64,000 nt of DNA from a virus. Of the stretch, positions 5,673-59,442 are shown piece by piece (position 1 is the first letter of the stretch; every line of letters starts with the position of its first letter). The position numbers and the translations under genes were made by a program. The DNA lies in IMG/VR virus record IMGVR_UViG_3300049617_000088, positions 31,714 through 95,713 of that record. One strand, 5' to 3'. The notes under the pieces are model-generated. The model did no database searches and was not told where the DNA came from. It saw only the letters and a list, made by a program, of their open reading frames with translations.

Positions 5673-6694
5673 GAGTTGACCAAATTTAACCTATTAACTA
5701 TTTCCTGCATCTTGGTAGCATCAAAAGCCAAGTTCATTCTAACCATCCCTGGCACCCCAAACAAGTCCCCGTTAATAAAATTAATTTTCGACTTGACAAA
5801 GTCGGCTTTATTTCCAACTTTAAACCAGCCAAACATTCCAGGTATTTGCTCGATATCTGAATTAACTTCTAGAATCTCTGTATTAACTTGCTTAATAATT
5901 CTTTTGGATTCTTGTAGGGCAGCGTAGGCTTGACCCTCAAAACTTTCCGTCAAAGTAGGATAGCCCTGCATTCTATTCATCAAATCATAAAGAAAGACTT
6001 GAGAGACCATCGAGACCCCCACCGTCATGGCTTCCATATATTGTAGAATCAAAGTGTAAAATTCTTTGTTGGGACAAACGACGTAGCCCAGCCTAAGACC
6101 AGAAAGACCCAGCATCTTACTTATAGAATAAATCTGAACATCACCAAAAGATTTTAATTGGTAACTAGGATCTATATAAGAGTGAGTATAATAAGCTGCA
6201 TCATGAATAAGTGGAATATGTCTCTCTTTTTCTAAAGAAAGATTACAAGCAATTTTTAATAGTTCCACATTAAAAATGAATCCATCAGGATTATTAGGAG
6301 ATAATGCTAAAAAACTATCCCAAAAATTAGTATTATCATTAATACATTTAAGTCCATGCATTTCAGCAAGAGGAGGTATGAGAGCCCAAAAAGGATTCCT
6401 CATACCTAATCTTTCTTTTTTCATTTGTTTAAGGGCATAGAAGCAAGCGCCTAATCCCTGTTTAGCCCCATTAGTAATAATCACTGGAGCCTGATGTTTC
6501 TGTTCTAACAACTGAACTAATGGTTTATAGCCTTGCGAAGGGGGATACTCAAAGAGATGATCTATCTTGGGCAATTCATAGACAGATAGATCAAATACTT
6601 TGAAAAGAGTATCCCTAACCACATGAGGTTCGCCAACGGAAACGTCAATCCAATCCGGTGGTAGTTGTGGTTTCGCAAGCAATATATCACTCAT
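5669..6694 (-). CDS. PLP-dependent aminotransferase, class I/II
   Basis: A 341-residue fold-type I aminotransferase. Visible: SPNNPDGF (substrate and PLP contact), HDAAYY (Asp pairing with the pyridine nitrogen), and SISKMLGLSGLRLGYVV, where Ser-x-Ser-Lys holds the catalytic Lys and the Arg binds phosphate. It is somewhat short for the family (usually about 380-420) but all key residues are present. The amino donor and acceptor cannot be told. It overlaps the broken gene before it by four bases. Confidence 0.85.
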   Translation of the reverse strand: MSDILLAKPQLPPDWIDVSVGEPHVVRDTLFKVFDLSVYELPKIDHLFEYPPSQGYKPLVQLLEQKHQAPVIITNGAKQGLGACFYALKQMKKERLGMRNPFWALIPPLAEMHGLKCINDNTNFWDSFLALSPNNPDGFIFNVELLKIACNLSLEKERHIPLIHDAAYYTHSYIDPSYQLKSFGDVQIYSISKMLGLSGLRLGYVVCPNKEFYTLILQYMEAMTVGVSMVSQVFLYDLMNRMQGYPTLTESFEGQAYAALQESKRIIKQVNTEILEVNSDIEQIPGMFGWFKVGNKADFVKSKINFINGDLFGVPGMVRMNLAFDATKMQEIVNRLNLVNS

Positions 6695-13916: not shown

Positions 13917-13932
13917 ATGATATATTCCTTTG

Positions 13933-14004
13933 TCTCTCCGACAGGACTCGAACCTGTATAAAGCAGCTTAGAAGGCTGCCGCCCTTCCATTAGACCACGG
14001 AGAG
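13933..14004 (-). tRNA. tRNA-Arg (anticodon UCU)
   Basis: A 72-base tRNA: acceptor CTCTCCG with CGGAGAG, anticodon stem GCAGC-GCTGC with loop CTTCTAA, T-arm ACAGG-TTCGAGT-CCTGT. CCA is not encoded, unlike the other tRNAs here. It reads AGA. A TTGACA lies upstream at 14034 but without a good -10. An HNH gene faces away 92 bases upstream. Confidence 0.92.
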
Positions 14005-14096
14005 TCGCGAGACAACCTAATCTCTATAAATTGGTTGTCAAGCCCTACAGGGCGCCTGCCAGCCAAATAATTGATAAGCTGGTTATATTTAATGTG

Positions 14097-14675
14097 ATGA
14101 GTAAAAAAGACTATACAAATTTAAAAGTAAATAGATTAACTTTTATTAAGGCAACTAACAAAAAGAGTGGTGGTAAAATTGTTTGGGAATTACTTTGTGA
14201 ATGCGGAAATATCACATATGCTATTGTATATAAAGTAACATCTGGACGAACTAAAAGTTGCGGATGTTATGCTTTACAAGTAGCCTCAAAAATTGCCACT
14301 AAGCGCGGATTAGCCAATAGAAAATACCCTCCTATTATAAGCAGTGCCCGACGAGTATGGGAGTACTATAAAGATGGATGTGATTTTGAAACATTCTTTA
14401 AACTATCTCAATTGTCCTGTGATTATTGCGGTAGAAAACCATATAGAATATTTAATATTGGATCGAAACAACGTAAAAGTGAGTGTACGAGTGACTTCCA
14501 AAAAACAGAAGGAAATTTTATATACAACGGTTTAGATCGTATTGATAGTTCAAAAACTCATACACCAGATAATGTGGTTCCATGTTGTTGGGATTGTAAT
14601 GATATGAAAAAAGATCGTACACGTGATGAATTTATATCACATATAAAACGTATACATACTCACCTTACCCCTTGA
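14097..14675 (+). CDS. HNH homing-type endonuclease with N-terminal DNA-binding module
   Basis: A 192-residue protein from ATG at 14097. CDYCGRKPYRIFN, then YNGLDRIDSSKTHTPDNVVP and CCWDCNDMKKDR form a Cys-rich HNH core; the first 90 residues include CECGN and SCGCYA, a likely DNA-binding module. It is a paralogue of 46513-47214. It sits between tRNA-Arg and RtcB on the opposite strand and overlaps the RtcB end by 11 bases. Confidence 0.8.
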   Translation: MSKKDYTNLKVNRLTFIKATNKKSGGKIVWELLCECGNITYAIVYKVTSGRTKSCGCYALQVASKIATKRGLANRKYPPIISSARRVWEYYKDGCDFETFFKLSQLSCDYCGRKPYRIFNIGSKQRKSECTSDFQKTEGNFIYNGLDRIDSSKTHTPDNVVPCCWDCNDMKKDRTRDEFISHIKRIHTHLTP

Positions 14676-28733: not shown

Positions 28734-29450
28734 TCACCAACTGAAATTAGTTGGAGCATAAACCTGACTTTGCATCCTAATAATCTCCCTCAGATCAGAA
28801 CGGGGTTGATAATAATCCGATTCAGCTACTCGAATCAGATAGCGCCACTCATTAGCGGAAGCTACCACACCAGTGTGAATATCCCACCAATCAAACTCTA
28901 CTACTGTAGCTGATGGAACAGTCATAGTTCTAAAAACTGGCTTGGAGGTCAAATCTTGAACATACTGCGACATCATATTATAGACCTCATAAGAGGGTTC
29001 CGAGGGAATCGGAACATACAGAGGGCTATTAACGAACTTGGTTAGACATCCTGTACCAGTAACCAGCAGATGATATCTATTGGGACGAGGATCATTCTCC
29101 TGCGCAAAGATATCAGGCTTCCCAGAACCACCCGGATTCTTGGTATTATCCCTTGGAGCACCATCTGTATGCCAACCAGGGATAGCTGGAGACATTCCCT
29201 TCATCAACATATGAATTTTGGTGTCAACGATAACATGCTTCCTATCATGACGGATGTTCATTGCACGCAAAGCGAGACGAGTAATTTCTCCACCATAACG
29301 AACAGCATCATCCAGAGAGGCATTCCAAAGACCGAAAGTATTCTTCAGTTCATTGGTCGGAGGCTGCTCAATGGAGCCGCCAATCACCAATGGATTACGA
29401 TTAAAAAGAACCTTGGTTGTCTTCTCGTTATTCATTGCCTTTTCTTTCAT
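28734..29450 (-). CDS. 2OG-Fe(II) oxygenase-like protein
   Basis: About 238 residues from ATG at 29450 (or 233 from 29435). GWHTDGAPRD gives the His-x-Asp pair, IHTGVVAS the distal His, and NEWRYLIRVAES the Arg that would bind 2-oxoglutarate, with strands between as in the jelly-roll fold. These enzymes hydroxylate proteins, nucleic acids or small molecules. Phage members exist but the substrate is unknown. Assigned from motif order only. Confidence 0.6.
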   Translation of the reverse strand: MKEKAMNNEKTTKVLFNRNPLVIGGSIEQPPTNELKNTFGLWNASLDDAVRYGGEITRLALRAMNIRHDRKHVIVDTKIHMLMKGMSPAIPGWHTDGAPRDNTKNPGGSGKPDIFAQENDPRPNRYHLLVTGTGCLTKFVNSPLYVPIPSEPSYEVYNMMSQYVQDLTSKPVFRTMTVPSATVVEFDWWDIHTGVVASANEWRYLIRVAESDYYQPRSDLREIIRMQSQVYAPTNFSW

Positions 29451-29785
29451 CGTACAAACATTGATCGCATTTACTATCTTCATACAATTCATCGGAATCA
29501 ATCGGAATCAAATAGCTTTTGACATGCAGCACAGCATACATAGTTCTCAGGGAAACATTCCTTATGAATCTCATCGCATGCCATGCAGGTTGAAGACCAA
29601 CTACGCTCGTGCTCACACATTCTAGGATCTAATGCCCGCATCTCACTTGAGAGTTGACGAGCTAATTCTTTTTCTCCACTGTTATAAGCTGCACATATTC
29701 TTTCAATTAAAGATTTTCGTTTATCACAAGTATTAAACCACTCTTGTCGGCGTCTAGATATTTCTTCTTTACTTAAAGTAGACAT
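29428..29785 (-). pseudogene. zinc protein broken by a 10-bp tandem duplication
   Basis: ATG at 29785 starts MSTLSKEEISRRRQEWFN; the frame carries Cys pairs (CEHERSWSSTCMACD, CCAACQKLFDSD) and stops after a 10-bp direct duplication (29491-29510). Removing one copy joins it to DELYEDSKCDQCLYDERKG, which matches DELYEDGRCDHCICDR at the end of the neighbour 29773-30108. Span 358 bases, 3n+1. Confidence 0.7.
29491..29510. repeat. 10-bp tandem duplication
   Basis: ATCGGAATCA occurs twice with no gap inside the zinc-protein gene 29428-29785. One copy restores a full frame and the expected family end. Confidence 0.85.
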
Positions 29786-30108
29786 CTTAACCTGTCACAT
29801 ATGCAATGATCACATCTACCATCTTCATATAATTCATCGGGGTCGAGTGGTATTTTACATTCGATACAGCGAGATATTCGTGTTGAACCAGTTTGGTCAG
29901 GATCACATTCCGTACAGGTACAAGTATTTTTCGCAACTAAACCGTGGTTAATTCCACGCGGCGAATTGCATGGGCATCCATCTGCAATGCAACGATTCTC
30001 TGGCAACAATGTTTCGCCACAAGCACGACAGCTATCACAATCGGTATAGATGTTTTCACCTTCCATTGGATGGAAATCGTTGGGATTCATTTTGTAATCA
30101 TCCGACAT
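29773..30108 (-). CDS. multi-zinc protein
   Basis: A 111-residue protein with about 16 Cys in C-x2-C pairs (CDSCRACGE, CTCTECDPD, CIECKIPLDPDELYEDGRCD). At least three zinc sites are likely. The C-terminal ribbon is shared with 29428-29785. Function unknown. Confidence 0.65.
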   Translation of the reverse strand: MSDDYKMNPNDFHPMEGENIYTDCDSCRACGETLLPENRCIADGCPCNSPRGINHGLVAKNTCTCTECDPDQTGSTRISRCIECKIPLDPDELYEDGRCDHCICDRLRCLL

Positions 30109-45668: not shown

Positions 45669-46586
45669 TCAATATGCCTTTTCTGGATTGTGAGGCTTGA
45701 CTACCCCACTTGTCAACCCTGCTTGGAATTTATCGAAATACTTATAGGTTGAATACAATTTAAGAATTTCCGGTGCGTTGTCATAGGCAAACTCTCGGAA
45801 CCAGCCCGAAGTAATGCTAGAACAAACTTTAGAGTATGCCAAGCACCATGCCTGGTCAATCGTCAATACACCAGGGTGAGGTACCAATGACCTCTCCACT
45901 GCTAGAACCGCTGCCTCTTCCAAGACACCAGCCAAACGAATGTCCCTAGAGCAATCAAAGAACTTCTGCTTGCTCGTCTGAACCTCTGCTCCATCCTTCT
46001 GATAATAGGTATAAGCAGGATGCTCATAAATCTTTACCGACTCATGAATCGAATCATGGTCATGAACATACTGCAAACCATCATCCGAGAAGAAGTGCTT
46101 CTTATTCTGATTCAGCTTGGGATGAGCATAGGTATAAGTCTCCTTCTCGCGAAGCTTATAGAAGTCCATATACTCAGGACGAATCTTCGCCCCAGACATC
46201 TTCATCCCATGGTAATCACCCATGGTCTTCCAGAAGTGAGGACTATTCTTCAGATACTTGTGAGAAGACTTAAGAGTAAAAAGCATATCGAAAGACGGAA
46301 TCATTCCGAGGGGAGTGTCAATATGATCTTCCTTGACTAGCTTCTCAAACATCTCTAGAGAAGTTCCAGGAGTAATCATTTCAAACTCACAGATAGAAGT
46401 TCCCTCGGCAATTACCTTCTTGCCACCATCCAGTGGATAGATCTTCTTTGCTTCAATCTTGGCAGAGTTAGCATCCAGCCAAGAATCACATTCCTCCTGC
46501 GAACAAACAAAATCAAAGTCGCGTGGCGGTCTGTTTAGTATCTGGGGCGCTCGTAACGCCAATGCCCTGCTCCCAACTAGTATCAT
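45669..46586 (-). CDS. nucleotidyltransferase-like protein
   Basis: A 305-residue protein whose start MILVGSRALALRAPQILN with RPPRDFDFV is the GS ... D-x-D pattern of the pol-beta-type nucleotidyltransferase fold. The rest is helical. Substrate unknown; tRNA or protein are candidates. Its start lies inside the end of an upstream HNH gene, and a second copy of its first nine codons, with different codons, lies 700 bases upstream (47287). See findings. Confidence 0.7.
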   Translation of the reverse strand: MILVGSRALALRAPQILNRPPRDFDFVCSQEECDSWLDANSAKIEAKKIYPLDGGKKVIAEGTSICEFEMITPGTSLEMFEKLVKEDHIDTPLGMIPSFDMLFTLKSSHKYLKNSPHFWKTMGDYHGMKMSGAKIRPEYMDFYKLREKETYTYAHPKLNQNKKHFFSDDGLQYVHDHDSIHESVKIYEHPAYTYYQKDGAEVQTSKQKFFDCSRDIRLAGVLEEAAVLAVERSLVPHPGVLTIDQAWCLAYSKVCSSITSGWFREFAYDNAPEILKLYSTYKYFDKFQAGLTSGVVKPHNPEKAY

Positions 46587-47214
46587 TTAGCTTATCCTTT
46601 AAGTGTAGGTTATAAATCTTTTCTATCCAGAAAAAGAAATCTTTTATAGAGCAATCCATTTTGCCGGTATTGCATCTAAAACAACAGGCGACTACGTTTA
46701 ATTTTGTGTGGCGTAACGAAGAATCAATTCTATCTAAACCATTGTATGTAAAGTATCCATCTTTAATACCTCTCGCGGAAGGATGATCTTTTTCATACTT
46801 TCCAACATAAGTATTATATACATTACATGGTTTAGCTCCACAATAGAAACAATCTTTTTGAGATAGATCTAAAAAATCTTCAAAAGATAAATCTCCATCT
46901 TCGTATCTATTACGATAGACTCTACGAGCCGACGCAATTCTCGGCTCTCTTTTGAACATTTTAGCCTGAGCTTTTTGCAAATTCAAAAGAATAATATCCT
47001 GATTAAGACAGCCGCAACTTTGGGTATGTCCTAATTTAATTGGGGATAATCTTGTCAGAAATTCTTTTGAACAATCACATAAACATTTAACTAAAATTTT
47101 ACCATCTTTAGATCTTTGATCTGTTACTTCTTTGATTATCAATCTACCAAATCTTTGGTTGATAAATTTTGATGCTCTTAAAATAGCTCTTGTTGCTTTT
47201 TTTGGATATCTCAT
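46513..47214 (-). CDS. HNH homing-type endonuclease
   Basis: A 233-residue paralogue of 14097-14675. CLCDCSKEF and SCGCLN form the N-terminal module; CFYCGAKPCNVYN, YNGLDRIDSSLRHTKLNVVA and CCFRCNTGKMD the HNH core. Its last 24 codons overlap the nucleotidyltransferase start in another frame. It separates that gene from its original first codons, as a homing insertion would. Confidence 0.8.
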   Translation of the reverse strand: MRYPKKATRAILRASKFINQRFGRLIIKEVTDQRSKDGKILVKCLCDCSKEFLTRLSPIKLGHTQSCGCLNQDIILLNLQKAQAKMFKREPRIASARRVYRNRYEDGDLSFEDFLDLSQKDCFYCGAKPCNVYNTYVGKYEKDHPSARGIKDGYFTYNGLDRIDSSLRHTKLNVVACCFRCNTGKMDCSIKDFFFWIEKIYNLHLKDKLNDTSWEQGIGVTSAPDTKQTATRL

Positions 47215-47254
47215 TGCTGCATACCTTTCATAGGCATATCAGCTTATGTATAGA

Positions 47255-47287
47255 TTAATCTAAAGCACGAGAGCCAACAAGAATCAT
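47255..47287 (-). pseudogene. orphan start of the nucleotidyltransferase gene
   Basis: ATG at 47287 overlaps the previous stop in the usual ATGA way and encodes MILVGSRAL followed by Asp and TAA. The same nine residues start the intact gene at 46586. Eight of the nine shared residues are encoded with at most one identical degenerate codon (GTT), so the downstream copy was recoded rather than duplicated recently. Confidence 0.75.
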
Positions 47288-47820
47288 TCTACAATCTCCA
47301 GTATATCAACGTTAAAGTAAGTGTCTGTTCGAGCCGAACGGGCACAGTAAGGAACTACTTCTAGTAGTTCAGTAGGAGGAAGATAATTATCATCCTTCCA
47401 TTTAGCTTCGGCATCAGTTTTCTTGATGTACCATTCGGTCTGAATCTTACTAGCCGCATCATATTTCTGTTGCCAGTCAGCTAAAACTTTTCTATGTTCA
47501 GCGTCCAGCTTACGAAGCATGTTCTTATTTTCTGGCAATATATTTTTATAACCGCACACCGCAATGTAATGGGCGTGTTCTTTAGTCGGTTTTGGACGAT
47601 CCGTATTGTGATAGAACTGATATGGTTCTGGATTAGCTTCTACCCAAGGAATAGTAAACTCAGGATCAACTCTCCTCGCAAACTCTTCATTGTAAATACA
47701 AAGCTTTTCCAGCTTGCTGACTAGTTCCTTAGCACGCTCCTCGGTCCTAACGGCACAGACATTCCAATCACTACGATCAGAGTATTCTCCCTGAGTACCA
47801 GTCACAACGTAGATTTTCAT
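47284..47820 (-). CDS. hypothetical protein
   Basis: A 178-residue protein (MKIYVVTGTQGEYSDRSDWN ... YFNVDILEIVE). The beginning looks like a small family of phage proteins that read a value and a charged helix follows; no name can be given. Directly upstream of the orphan nucleotidyltransferase start. Confidence 0.6.
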   Translation of the reverse strand: MKIYVVTGTQGEYSDRSDWNVCAVRTEERAKELVSKLEKLCIYNEEFARRVDPEFTIPWVEANPEPYQFYHNTDRPKPTKEHAHYIAVCGYKNILPENKNMLRKLDAEHRKVLADWQQKYDAASKIQTEWYIKKTDAEAKWKDDNYLPPTELLEVVPYCARSARTDTYFNVDILEIVE

Positions 47821-58568: not shown

Positions 58569-59007
58569 GGTACGAAAGTTCCTTTGTTAGAGATAATGCT
58601 AAGCTATTACTTTCATTGGGAAGACTACTTCCTTTCTTACAATTACAGTTGGTACACATCGTTTGAAGATTTTCAATCTGGTTGGTACCACCCAATGATT
58701 TCGGAATGATATGATCCTTAGTCATAAGAATCAAATTTCCACTATCTCCATGCGCAAACAGATTCAAATGCGGAATGATATCCTGTGGCACAAGACCATT
58801 CTTACGTGCTTGATATTCCAAGGAGAATGTTTTCCCAATCAAACCACACGAAACACACTTGAGATTACGTTTGAAACATTCCAAACGTTCGCTGTTCATG
58901 TTAGAACTAACCATTCCCTGCGGAGTATCAAAATCCATTCTTGGCATACCAAAACCAATGAAGGGAAGAATATACTCCACAGGAAATCTTGCTAGTACGA
59001 TCATCAT
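58513..59007 (-). CDS. HNH endonuclease
   Basis: A 164-residue HNH protein: CVSCGLIGKTFS, then KDHIIPKSLGGTNQIENL and CTNCNCKKGS. The end (HEEFYFCTWDGCTG) overlaps the lipoprotein start out of frame, like the HNH at 46513, so it probably inserted just upstream of that gene. Confidence 0.8.
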   Translation of the reverse strand: MMIVLARFPVEYILPFIGFGMPRMDFDTPQGMVSSNMNSERLECFKRNLKCVSCGLIGKTFSLEYQARKNGLVPQDIIPHLNLFAHGDSGNLILMTKDHIIPKSLGGTNQIENLQTMCTNCNCKKGSSLPNESNSLALSLTKELSYHEEFYFCTWDGCTGCLRY

Positions 59008-59016
59008 TCCAAAACC

Positions 59017-59442
59017 TTAGTTGTTAGAAGAAACTAATTTACACAAACTAATCCACTTATTAAGTGGAAAACTATATTTAGATCTATTACAATCTAAACA
59101 AGAAATGTTTATGTTTTCATTAACATTTTGACCGCCCAAACAAACAGGAATTATATGATCTAAACTCTTTGGATTATCTTCTGAAAATAATCTAGTACAA
59201 TAGCAACACGCAGTTGCATGCACATATCTTCTAGAGACTTCAAGTAGAGTTATAGAATCAACTTTCCTTTCCCAGCCATCAGTTTGGCGATCTGAACACA
59301 ATGCATGATGTACTATATTTCGTGCTATGTATGAACAATCATCGCACCTCTTATGTCCCGTTCTAAATGGGAAAAATTTATTTCCACAAATCTCACAATC
59401 ATATATAAAATAGATATTGGAATCTTTTTTCTGAATATCCAT
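59017..59442 (-). CDS. HNH endonuclease
   Basis: A 141-residue HNH protein: CEICGNKFFPFRTGHKRCDD, CCYCTRLFSEDNPKSLDHII, then CLDCNRSKYSFP. Tandem with the HNH gene at 58513. Its start overlaps a small zinc-ribbon gene in another frame. Confidence 0.75.
   Translation of the reverse strand: MDIQKKDSNIYFIYDCEICGNKFFPFRTGHKRCDDCSYIARNIVHHALCSDRQTDGWERKVDSITLLEVSRRYVHATACCYCTRLFSEDNPKSLDHIIPVCLGGQNVNENINISCLDCNRSKYSFPLNKWISLCKLVSSNN

What the first reader, a model, noticed from the sequence alone, without database searches (positions are those of the whole stretch)
46513..47287. HNH gene sits between two differently coded copies of the same gene start
At 47287 a minus-strand ATG, overlapping the previous stop in this genome's usual way, encodes MILVGSRAL then stops. 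About 700 bases downstream, after an HNH gene, the intact nucleotidyltransferase begins with the same nine residues MILVGSRAL. Nearly every degenerate codon differs (ATT/ATA, CTT/CTA, GGC/GGG, TCT/AGC, CGT/AGG, GCT/GCA, TTA/TTG); only GTT is kept. The HNH frame runs through the new copy. The simplest story: the endonuclease inserted after codon 9-10 and rebuilt the front of its host gene with codons that its own cleavage site no longer matches, so the gene stays usable and immune.
Basis: partly seen in the sequence, partly recalled or inferred. Interest (0 to 1): 0.85.

Follow-up and report, generated by a model that had tools for sequence, protein, structure and literature searches.

The report
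Phage homing gene carrying recoded gene end
A DNA-cutting gene in this phage sits inside the start of another gene and brings its own differently spelled copy of that start, so the split gene stays whole and the cutter probably cannot cut it again; the same arrangement, at gene starts or gene ends, was found in eight other phages or phage groups, some with close relatives that still show the uninterrupted gene.

Summary
On the minus strand, a native gene start (47287) is cut off after codon 8-9, an HNH endonuclease ORF follows (47214-46513), and the intact gene (46586-45669) restarts with the same residues in other codons. HNH-less relatives resemble the stranded copy, not the new one. A second viral contig (L015) has an HNH 43% identical in the same gene at the same site.

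The pattern is not confined to this gene. Screening kin of the HNH, and inspecting relatives, gave seven further cases. Three have close HNH-less relatives. In Pseudomonas phage PA11, the stranded start equals phage PP21's first 8 codons exactly; all 8 codons of the functional copy differ; after that 39 of 41 codons are identical. In Acinetobacter phage Liucustia, the last seven degenerate codons, stop included, are changed without altering the protein, between 400 nt on each side with no mismatch. In Lactococcus phage phi93 the native gene end lies after the HNH.

Best reading: a homing endonuclease gene that inserts near the edge of a coding sequence and carries a recoded cap that restores the gene without restoring the target. 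Yeast WHO elements and fungal mitochondrial mORFs work alike, at 3' ends only. Cleavage was not tested.

The parts
47284..47820 (-). Upstream gene; its TGA overlaps the native ATG of the target gene (ATGA), the genome's usual junction
47255..47287 (-). Stranded native start of the target gene: ATG ATT CTT GTT GGC TCT CGT GCT (TTA GAT TAA); the native part is probably 47287-47264 (8 codons)
   Evidence: start motif conserved in homologues; codons like HNH-less relatives; L015 stranded copy ends after the same GCT
47215..47254 (-). Rest of the leader of the element before the HNH start codon; no intron or other RNA family found
46513..47214 (-). HNH endonuclease ORF, 233 aa; Cys-rich N-terminal part and C-terminal HNH-like part; its last 74 nt overlap the recoded start
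   Evidence: PHROG HNH/endonuclease VII matches; conserved C44, C46, C48, C67, C69, C122, C125, C178, C181, N182; model pLDDT 87.9
46563..46586 (-). Recoded 5' cap: ATG ATA CTA GTT GGG AGC AGG GCA, giving the target gene a new start with the same protein sequence
46518..46562 (-). Possible extension of the cap to codon 23: rare codons run to about codon 23, where the HNH frame ends
   Evidence: change point at codon 23; first 20 codons among the 3 rarest of 494 genome windows; could also be overlap constraint; not confirmed by an empty site
45669..46586 (-). Target gene as now expressed: DUF7277+DUF7275 protein (phrog_2141), nucleotidyltransferase-like GS..DxD motif in the first 25 residues, intact

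Best explanation
This is a free-standing HNH homing endonuclease gene that has inserted after codon 8 (or 9) of a conserved phage gene. The inserted DNA carries, at its downstream end, a synonymous rewriting of the codons that the insertion cut off, with a new start codon and an RBS-like sequence inside the HNH reading frame, so the target gene is whole again. The proposed mechanism is: (1) the HNH protein cuts HNH-less alleles at a site spanning the insertion point; (2) recombination copies in the element using flanking homology; (3) the site is then gone twice over, because the native half-site is separated from its other half and the restored half-site is recoded. A faithful copy of the start would recreate the target, which explains why the cap must differ. 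Shown here: the architecture, the native identity of the stranded copy, exact empty sites in PA11, Liucustia, phi93 and L132, and the patchy distribution of the element across the gene tree. Inferred: cutting, immunity, homing, and selection on the codons.
For: Window architecture. Conserved gene start in homologues. Second contig L015: stranded MILIGSRA, HNH 43% identical, recoded VILIGSRAL; its sister gene L017 (96/91 support) shares the upstream genes and has no HNH. The window gene's sister L012 also lacks the HNH (95/93), while the two HNH proteins are sisters (97/90), so element and gene histories disagree. PA11/PSA11 versus PP21, TC6, O4: codon map NsssNsss then 39/41 identical, Fisher 1e-7. 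Liucustia/phi1_092033 versus CP14, Aci01-1: TTC ATT TGG ACT AGA ACA GCA TAG becomes TTT ATC TGG ACG AGG ACT GCC TGA, native end kept after the HNH, 8/24 nt changed versus 0/800 in flanks. phi93/PhiM1127 versus MP1. L132 versus L217, L218: CCA TAT CGA TAA becomes CCC TAC AGG TGA, native end after the HNH. L204 and L100. L013: the same gene family capped at its 3' end by an HNH of another type on the opposite strand.
Against: No cleavage data. No close empty site for the window itself (nearest gene 66% identical). The HNH subfamily matches Pfam HNH poorly: P0002 has no hit, and the best solved-structure match is weak (PacI, profile E 2e-4, Foldseek E 0.015). Most kin loci (about 78 of 86 screened) show no detectable gene-end duplication, so the cap is not a fixed feature of the family.
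Confidence: 0.87

Rival explanations
1. Foreign-end capture without selection on codons: the element picked up the start of the same gene from a distant phage, and the codons differ only because that homologue was diverged. Immunity is then a by-product.
For: Over 8 cases 64 of 88 codons differ against 55.6 expected for two independent draws from local codon usage, only a mild excess (P 0.03). phi93's new end differs in amino acids and looks foreign. Fungal mORF caps are explained as horizontally acquired (PMC3630166).
Against: In PA11, Liucustia and L132 every degenerate codon differs (17/17). The five exact-peptide cases give 28/31 against 20.6 expected (P 0.002), and six-fold codons switch box 18/22 against 9.6 (P 0.0003). 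These counts were chosen after seeing the data, and the box excess comes mainly from L013 (without it 8/12, P 0.10).
Confidence: 0.45
2. Old tandem duplication of the gene start that drifted apart, with an HNH gene landing between the copies later.
For: Two copies of the start flank the HNH in the window.
Against: In PA11 and Liucustia everything outside the 24-nt block is 95-100% identical to the HNH-less phage, while the block is changed at every degenerate codon. No HNH-less relative examined has two starts or two ends.
Confidence: 0.02
3. A group I intron or intein with an HNH ORF; the repeated residues are an internal guide or chance.
For: HNH genes are common in phage introns (established knowledge).
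Against: No Rfam intron match in either locus at E up to 1. Only about 50 nt separate the stranded codons from the HNH start. The second copy is a same-sense in-frame start of the intact gene, not a guide sequence. The HNH is not in frame with the gene.
Confidence: 0.02
4. 47287 is a small unrelated ORF and the match is coincidence.
For: The mini-ORF is only 10 codons.
Against: Nine identical residues that are the conserved start of the very gene downstream, above every mismatched pair in two null sets, and repeated in L015.
Confidence: 0.01

Closest known systems
WHO elements of Torulaspora and Lachancea yeasts (Coughlan et al. 2020, PMC7282813)
   Same: Endonuclease gene next to a target gene whose end has been replaced by a resistant version, with a fragment of the native end left beyond the endonuclease gene; resistance comes from allelic sequence differences; allele-specific cleavage shown there.
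   Different: Yeast nucleus, HO-like endonucleases, always the 3' end of (mainly) FBA1, long replaced end. Here: phage, HNH, 5' end in the window, cap of about 8 codons, several unrelated target genes.
Mobile ORFs (mORFs) of fungal mitochondria, e.g. atp6 of Allomyces and Glomus (PMC3630166)
   Same: Inserted endonuclease ORF carries a C-terminal gene end that replaces the native one; native end lies downstream; DNA identity low while protein identity is high.
   Different: LAGLIDADG or GIY-YIG endonucleases in mitochondria, C-terminal ends only. Here HNH in phages and also N-terminal starts.
Phage HNH endonucleases of Skunavirus and of ICP1-like phages (PMC12724721, PMC10448857)
   Same: Free-standing HNH genes that vary between related phages, near essential genes; marker exclusion activity shown for some Skunavirus HNH proteins (abstract).
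   Different: Word searches of the main texts found no account of replaced or recoded gene ends: no 'synonymous' in either, no 'methyl' or 'duplicat' in the Skunavirus paper.
PacI (3ldy) and Gme HNH nickase (4h9d)
   Same: Weak profile and fold similarity to the C-terminal part.
   Different: Full-length similarity is absent; N-terminal Cys-rich part unmatched.

Membership tests
Phage HNH homing endonuclease gene (free-standing) | HNH-type nuclease domain | tested here: met
   PHROG HNH endonuclease E 1.2e-13 and endonuclease VII E 1.2e-12; weak PacI and 4h9d matches; but no Pfam HNH hit for P0002 itself
Phage HNH homing endonuclease gene (free-standing) | Present/absent at one site among relatives, with clean empty sites | tested here: met
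   Nucleotide-level in PA11, Liucustia, phi93 and L132; for the window only by relatives at 54-66% protein identity
Phage HNH homing endonuclease gene (free-standing) | Cuts the HNH-less allele and is copied into it | not testable with these tools
   needs protein and mixed infections
WHO element | Target gene end replaced by a resistant version, native end stranded beyond the endonuclease gene | tested here: met
   Architecture met at the 5' end in the window and at 3' ends in Liucustia, phi93, L132; resistance itself not tested
WHO element | HO/VDE-like endonuclease and yeast FBA1 target | tested here: not met
   HNH family instead; target is a phage DUF7277/DUF7275 protein
Fungal mitochondrial mORF | LAGLIDADG or GIY-YIG endonuclease with a C-terminal gene end | tested here: not met
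   HNH, and an N-terminal gene end in the window
Group I intron with HNH ORF | Intron RNA structure around the ORF | tested here: not met
   No Rfam match in the window locus or L015 at E up to 1 other than a sub-threshold viral CRE hit elsewhere in L015
Intein | In-frame fusion to the host protein | tested here: not met
   HNH and target gene are in different frames and have separate starts

The most novel reading that the evidence does not exclude
Phages hold a widespread, undescribed class of homing elements, from more than one HNH family, that invade conserved coding sequence at either gene edge. Each carries a short cap of the gene rewritten in synonymous codons, with selection keeping the cap mismatched to the nuclease target: a natural counterpart of laboratory rescue drives that carry a recoded copy of the gene they cut.
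Probability: 0.5. Interest if true: 0.9.

Novelty: new variant of a known kind. Interest (0 to 1): 0.82.

Why it matters
Homing endonucleases are thought to persist by sitting in introns, inteins or between genes, where they do no harm. Here they enter coding sequence without splicing by bringing a spare gene end. It would explain how HNH genes spread through dense phage genomes, leave patches of abnormal synonymous divergence at gene edges, and mislead gene-start annotation. The stranded and capped copies also point directly to the probable cleavage site of each otherwise uncharacterised nuclease, so cutting can be tested with two short sequences per case.

Tried and rejected
Nucleotide search of the window region in phages: no match. 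Viral search with the window protein alone: no relatives; the alignment gave 230, of which 80 were kept. Intron hypothesis: no Rfam support. Cap codon rarity in L015: no shift in codon usage there, so rarity is not a general mark of a cap. The window's second HNH (14094-14675) shows no gene-end duplication. A pattern scan for the AGY-AGR type start found only L015's contig, one distant homologue with an ordinary start (L127) and two contigs without the gene. L060 also has AGC AGG, but its contig begins at codon 4, so its upstream side is unknown. Weaker duplications in L094, L191 and L103 were judged chance or left aside. Ten literature searches found no account in phages; the library holds open-licence papers only.

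Full report
What is there. The window is part of a 95.7-kb IMG/VR virus record. On the minus strand, ORF 47820-47284 ends in a TGA that overlaps an ATG at 47287. That ATG opens MILVGSRALD and stops. After about 50 nt comes an HNH ORF (47214-46513, 233 aa), and within its last 74 nt a second ATG (46586) opens the intact 305-aa gene, again with MILVGSRAL, in other codons.

What the genes are. The intact gene is a DUF7277+DUF7275 protein (phrog_2141, E 9e-92) with homologues in 716 phage records. All ten homologues aligned have a GS motif near the start and an invariant DxD further on, the layout of nucleotidyltransferases (the family inference is from established knowledge of that motif). The stranded copy is therefore the original start of this gene, in the genome's normal ATGA junction. 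The HNH protein matches PHROG HNH and endonuclease VII families. It has a Cys-rich N-terminal part and conserved C..C, YNGLDRID and C..CN motifs. An AlphaFold model has mean pLDDT 87.9, with only weak fold matches, the best being PacI.

A second case in the same gene. A viral scan with the alignment gave 80 relatives. One, L015 (446-kb contig), has the same layout: stranded ATG ATT CTG ATT GGT TCT CGT GCT, an HNH 43% identical, then GTG ATC CTG ATC GGA AGC AGA GCT TTG opening the intact gene. Both elements appear to begin immediately after the same GCT codon. L017, the sister of L015 in the gene tree (96/91) and with the same upstream genes, has no HNH and one start. The window's sister L012 (95/93) also lacks the HNH, although the two HNH proteins are sisters (97/90). 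Gene and element histories therefore disagree, as expected for a mobile element, or for repeated loss.

Across seven HNH-less relatives, 18 of 56 codons equal the stranded copy and 3 equal the new copy. Arg7 is AGR in both HNH-bearing genes and CGN in about 20 HNH-less relatives that have Arg there (Fisher 0.004 for 20).

Wider search. The 86 distinct HNH loci related to the window's were screened for peptides repeated on both sides of the HNH, against mismatched pairs of loci as a null (a smaller first pass). Together with direct inspection this gave seven further cases. Empty sites could be read in four of them.

PA11 (5' end, Pseudomonas phage). PP21, without HNH, reads ATG CCC CTA AAG AAA GGC AAG AGT then AAG AAG ACG. 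PA11 has exactly those eight codons, then ATT TGA, the HNH, and GTG CCG TTA AAA CGA GGA AAA TCA followed by AAG AAG ACG. All eight codons of the block differ (the start codon and K5R being the only non-synonymous ones); of the next 41 codons, 39 are identical (Fisher 1e-7). PSA11 is the same as PA11 in this block; TC6 and O4 are further HNH-less relatives.

Liucustia and phi1_092033 (3' end of the tail fibre gene, Acinetobacter phages). CP14 and Aci01-1, without HNH, end TTC ATT TGG ACT AGA ACA GCA TAG. Liucustia ends TTT ATC TGG ACG AGG ACT GCC TGA, then the HNH, then ATTTGGACTAGAACAGCATAG. Every degenerate codon is changed, stop codon included, with no amino-acid change; 400 nt on either side have no mismatch to CP14. 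The stranded native end now serves as the last residues of the HNH itself (IWTRTA).

phi93 and PhiM1127 (3' end of a methylase, Lactococcus phages). The native end, 100% identical over 119 nt to MP1 and others, lies after the HNH, and the functional end is replaced by a different one. phi145 has a hybrid end without this HNH, perhaps a recombinant or a loss.

L132/L216 (3' end). HNH-less L217 and L218 end CCA TAT CGA TAA; L132 ends CCC TAC AGG TGA, and its HNH ends CCA TAT CGA TAA followed by downstream sequence like that of L217. Its HNH belongs to the same clade as the window's (99/96).

L204 (5' end of a metallophosphoesterase) and L100 (3' end) show the same arrangement but were not checked against an empty site. 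L013, an HNH-less relative for the window's 5' site, has its gene capped at the 3' end by an HNH of a different kind on the opposite strand, with the native end 305 nt further on. So the arrangement is not tied to one HNH family.

How it probably works. An insertion alone destroys the target site, as in introns. But a gene cut near its edge must be made whole, and copying the lost edge faithfully would rebuild the target. A cap that keeps the protein and changes the DNA solves both problems. The exact match between the stranded block and the cap in PA11 (8 codons each), with nothing lost, is what this predicts. Cutting, copying and immunity are inferred. In the window, rare codons continue to codon 23, where the HNH frame ends; the cap may be longer there, or the overlap may constrain codons.

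Was the recoding selected? Against two independent draws from local codon usage, already a saturated null, 64 of 88 codons differ versus 55.6 expected (P 0.03). In the five cases with an exactly conserved peptide it is 28 of 31 versus 20.6 (P 0.002). Six-fold codons switch box 18 of 22 versus 9.6 (P 0.0003), mostly because of L013; without it 8 of 12 (P 0.10). These tests were made after the cases were found and some codon tables are small, so selection is plausible but not proven. For the window alone the codon difference is no more than a diverged homologue would show (6 of 7, P 0.38).

Compared with what is known. The closest systems are yeast WHO elements (PMC7282813) and fungal mitochondrial mORFs (PMC3630166). 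Both replace the 3' end of a gene, strand the native end beyond the endonuclease, and in mORFs the replaced end can be nearly all synonymous. Here the nuclease is HNH, the hosts are phages, caps can be as short as 4-8 codons, and gene starts are used as well as gene ends. Papers on phage HNH genes that I could search do not describe it, but subscription journals and preprints were not searched.

Verdict. It is a new variant of a known kind, with strong comparative evidence and no biochemistry yet.

Noticed in passing
window 14094-14675 (+): A second HNH gene of the same broad family, between a tRNA-Arg (13932-14004, minus) and the 3' end of an RtcB-like gene that it overlaps by about 11 nt; no gene-end duplication detected.
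   Followed up: partly
L013:5001-6390: NTase gene capped at its 3' end by an antisense HNH of another type; the native end remains at 6223-6390; all 10 six-fold codons with the same residue switch codon box.
   Followed up: yes
L119 (Lactococcus phage phi145) 781-1638: Methylase with a hybrid 3' end (foreign segment followed by the native last residues) and no HNH at this site: perhaps a recombinant or a loss of the element.
   Followed up: partly
L060:1-20: NTase homologue with AGC AGG at Ser-Arg, the recoded type, on a contig that begins at codon 4; the upstream side is missing.
   Followed up: no
window 58600-59442 (-): Two neighbouring HNH-like ORFs with similar ends (DHIIP..GG..N), possibly a broken or duplicated HNH gene.
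   Followed up: no
window 29449-30108 (-): A 20-residue C-terminal peptide of ORF 29773-30108 recurs 265 nt away at 65% identity; paralogue or another gene-end event, not examined.
   Followed up: no
L092 and L097: Rows of several HNH genes of this family in tandem, each with two HNH halves, in viral contigs.
   Followed up: no
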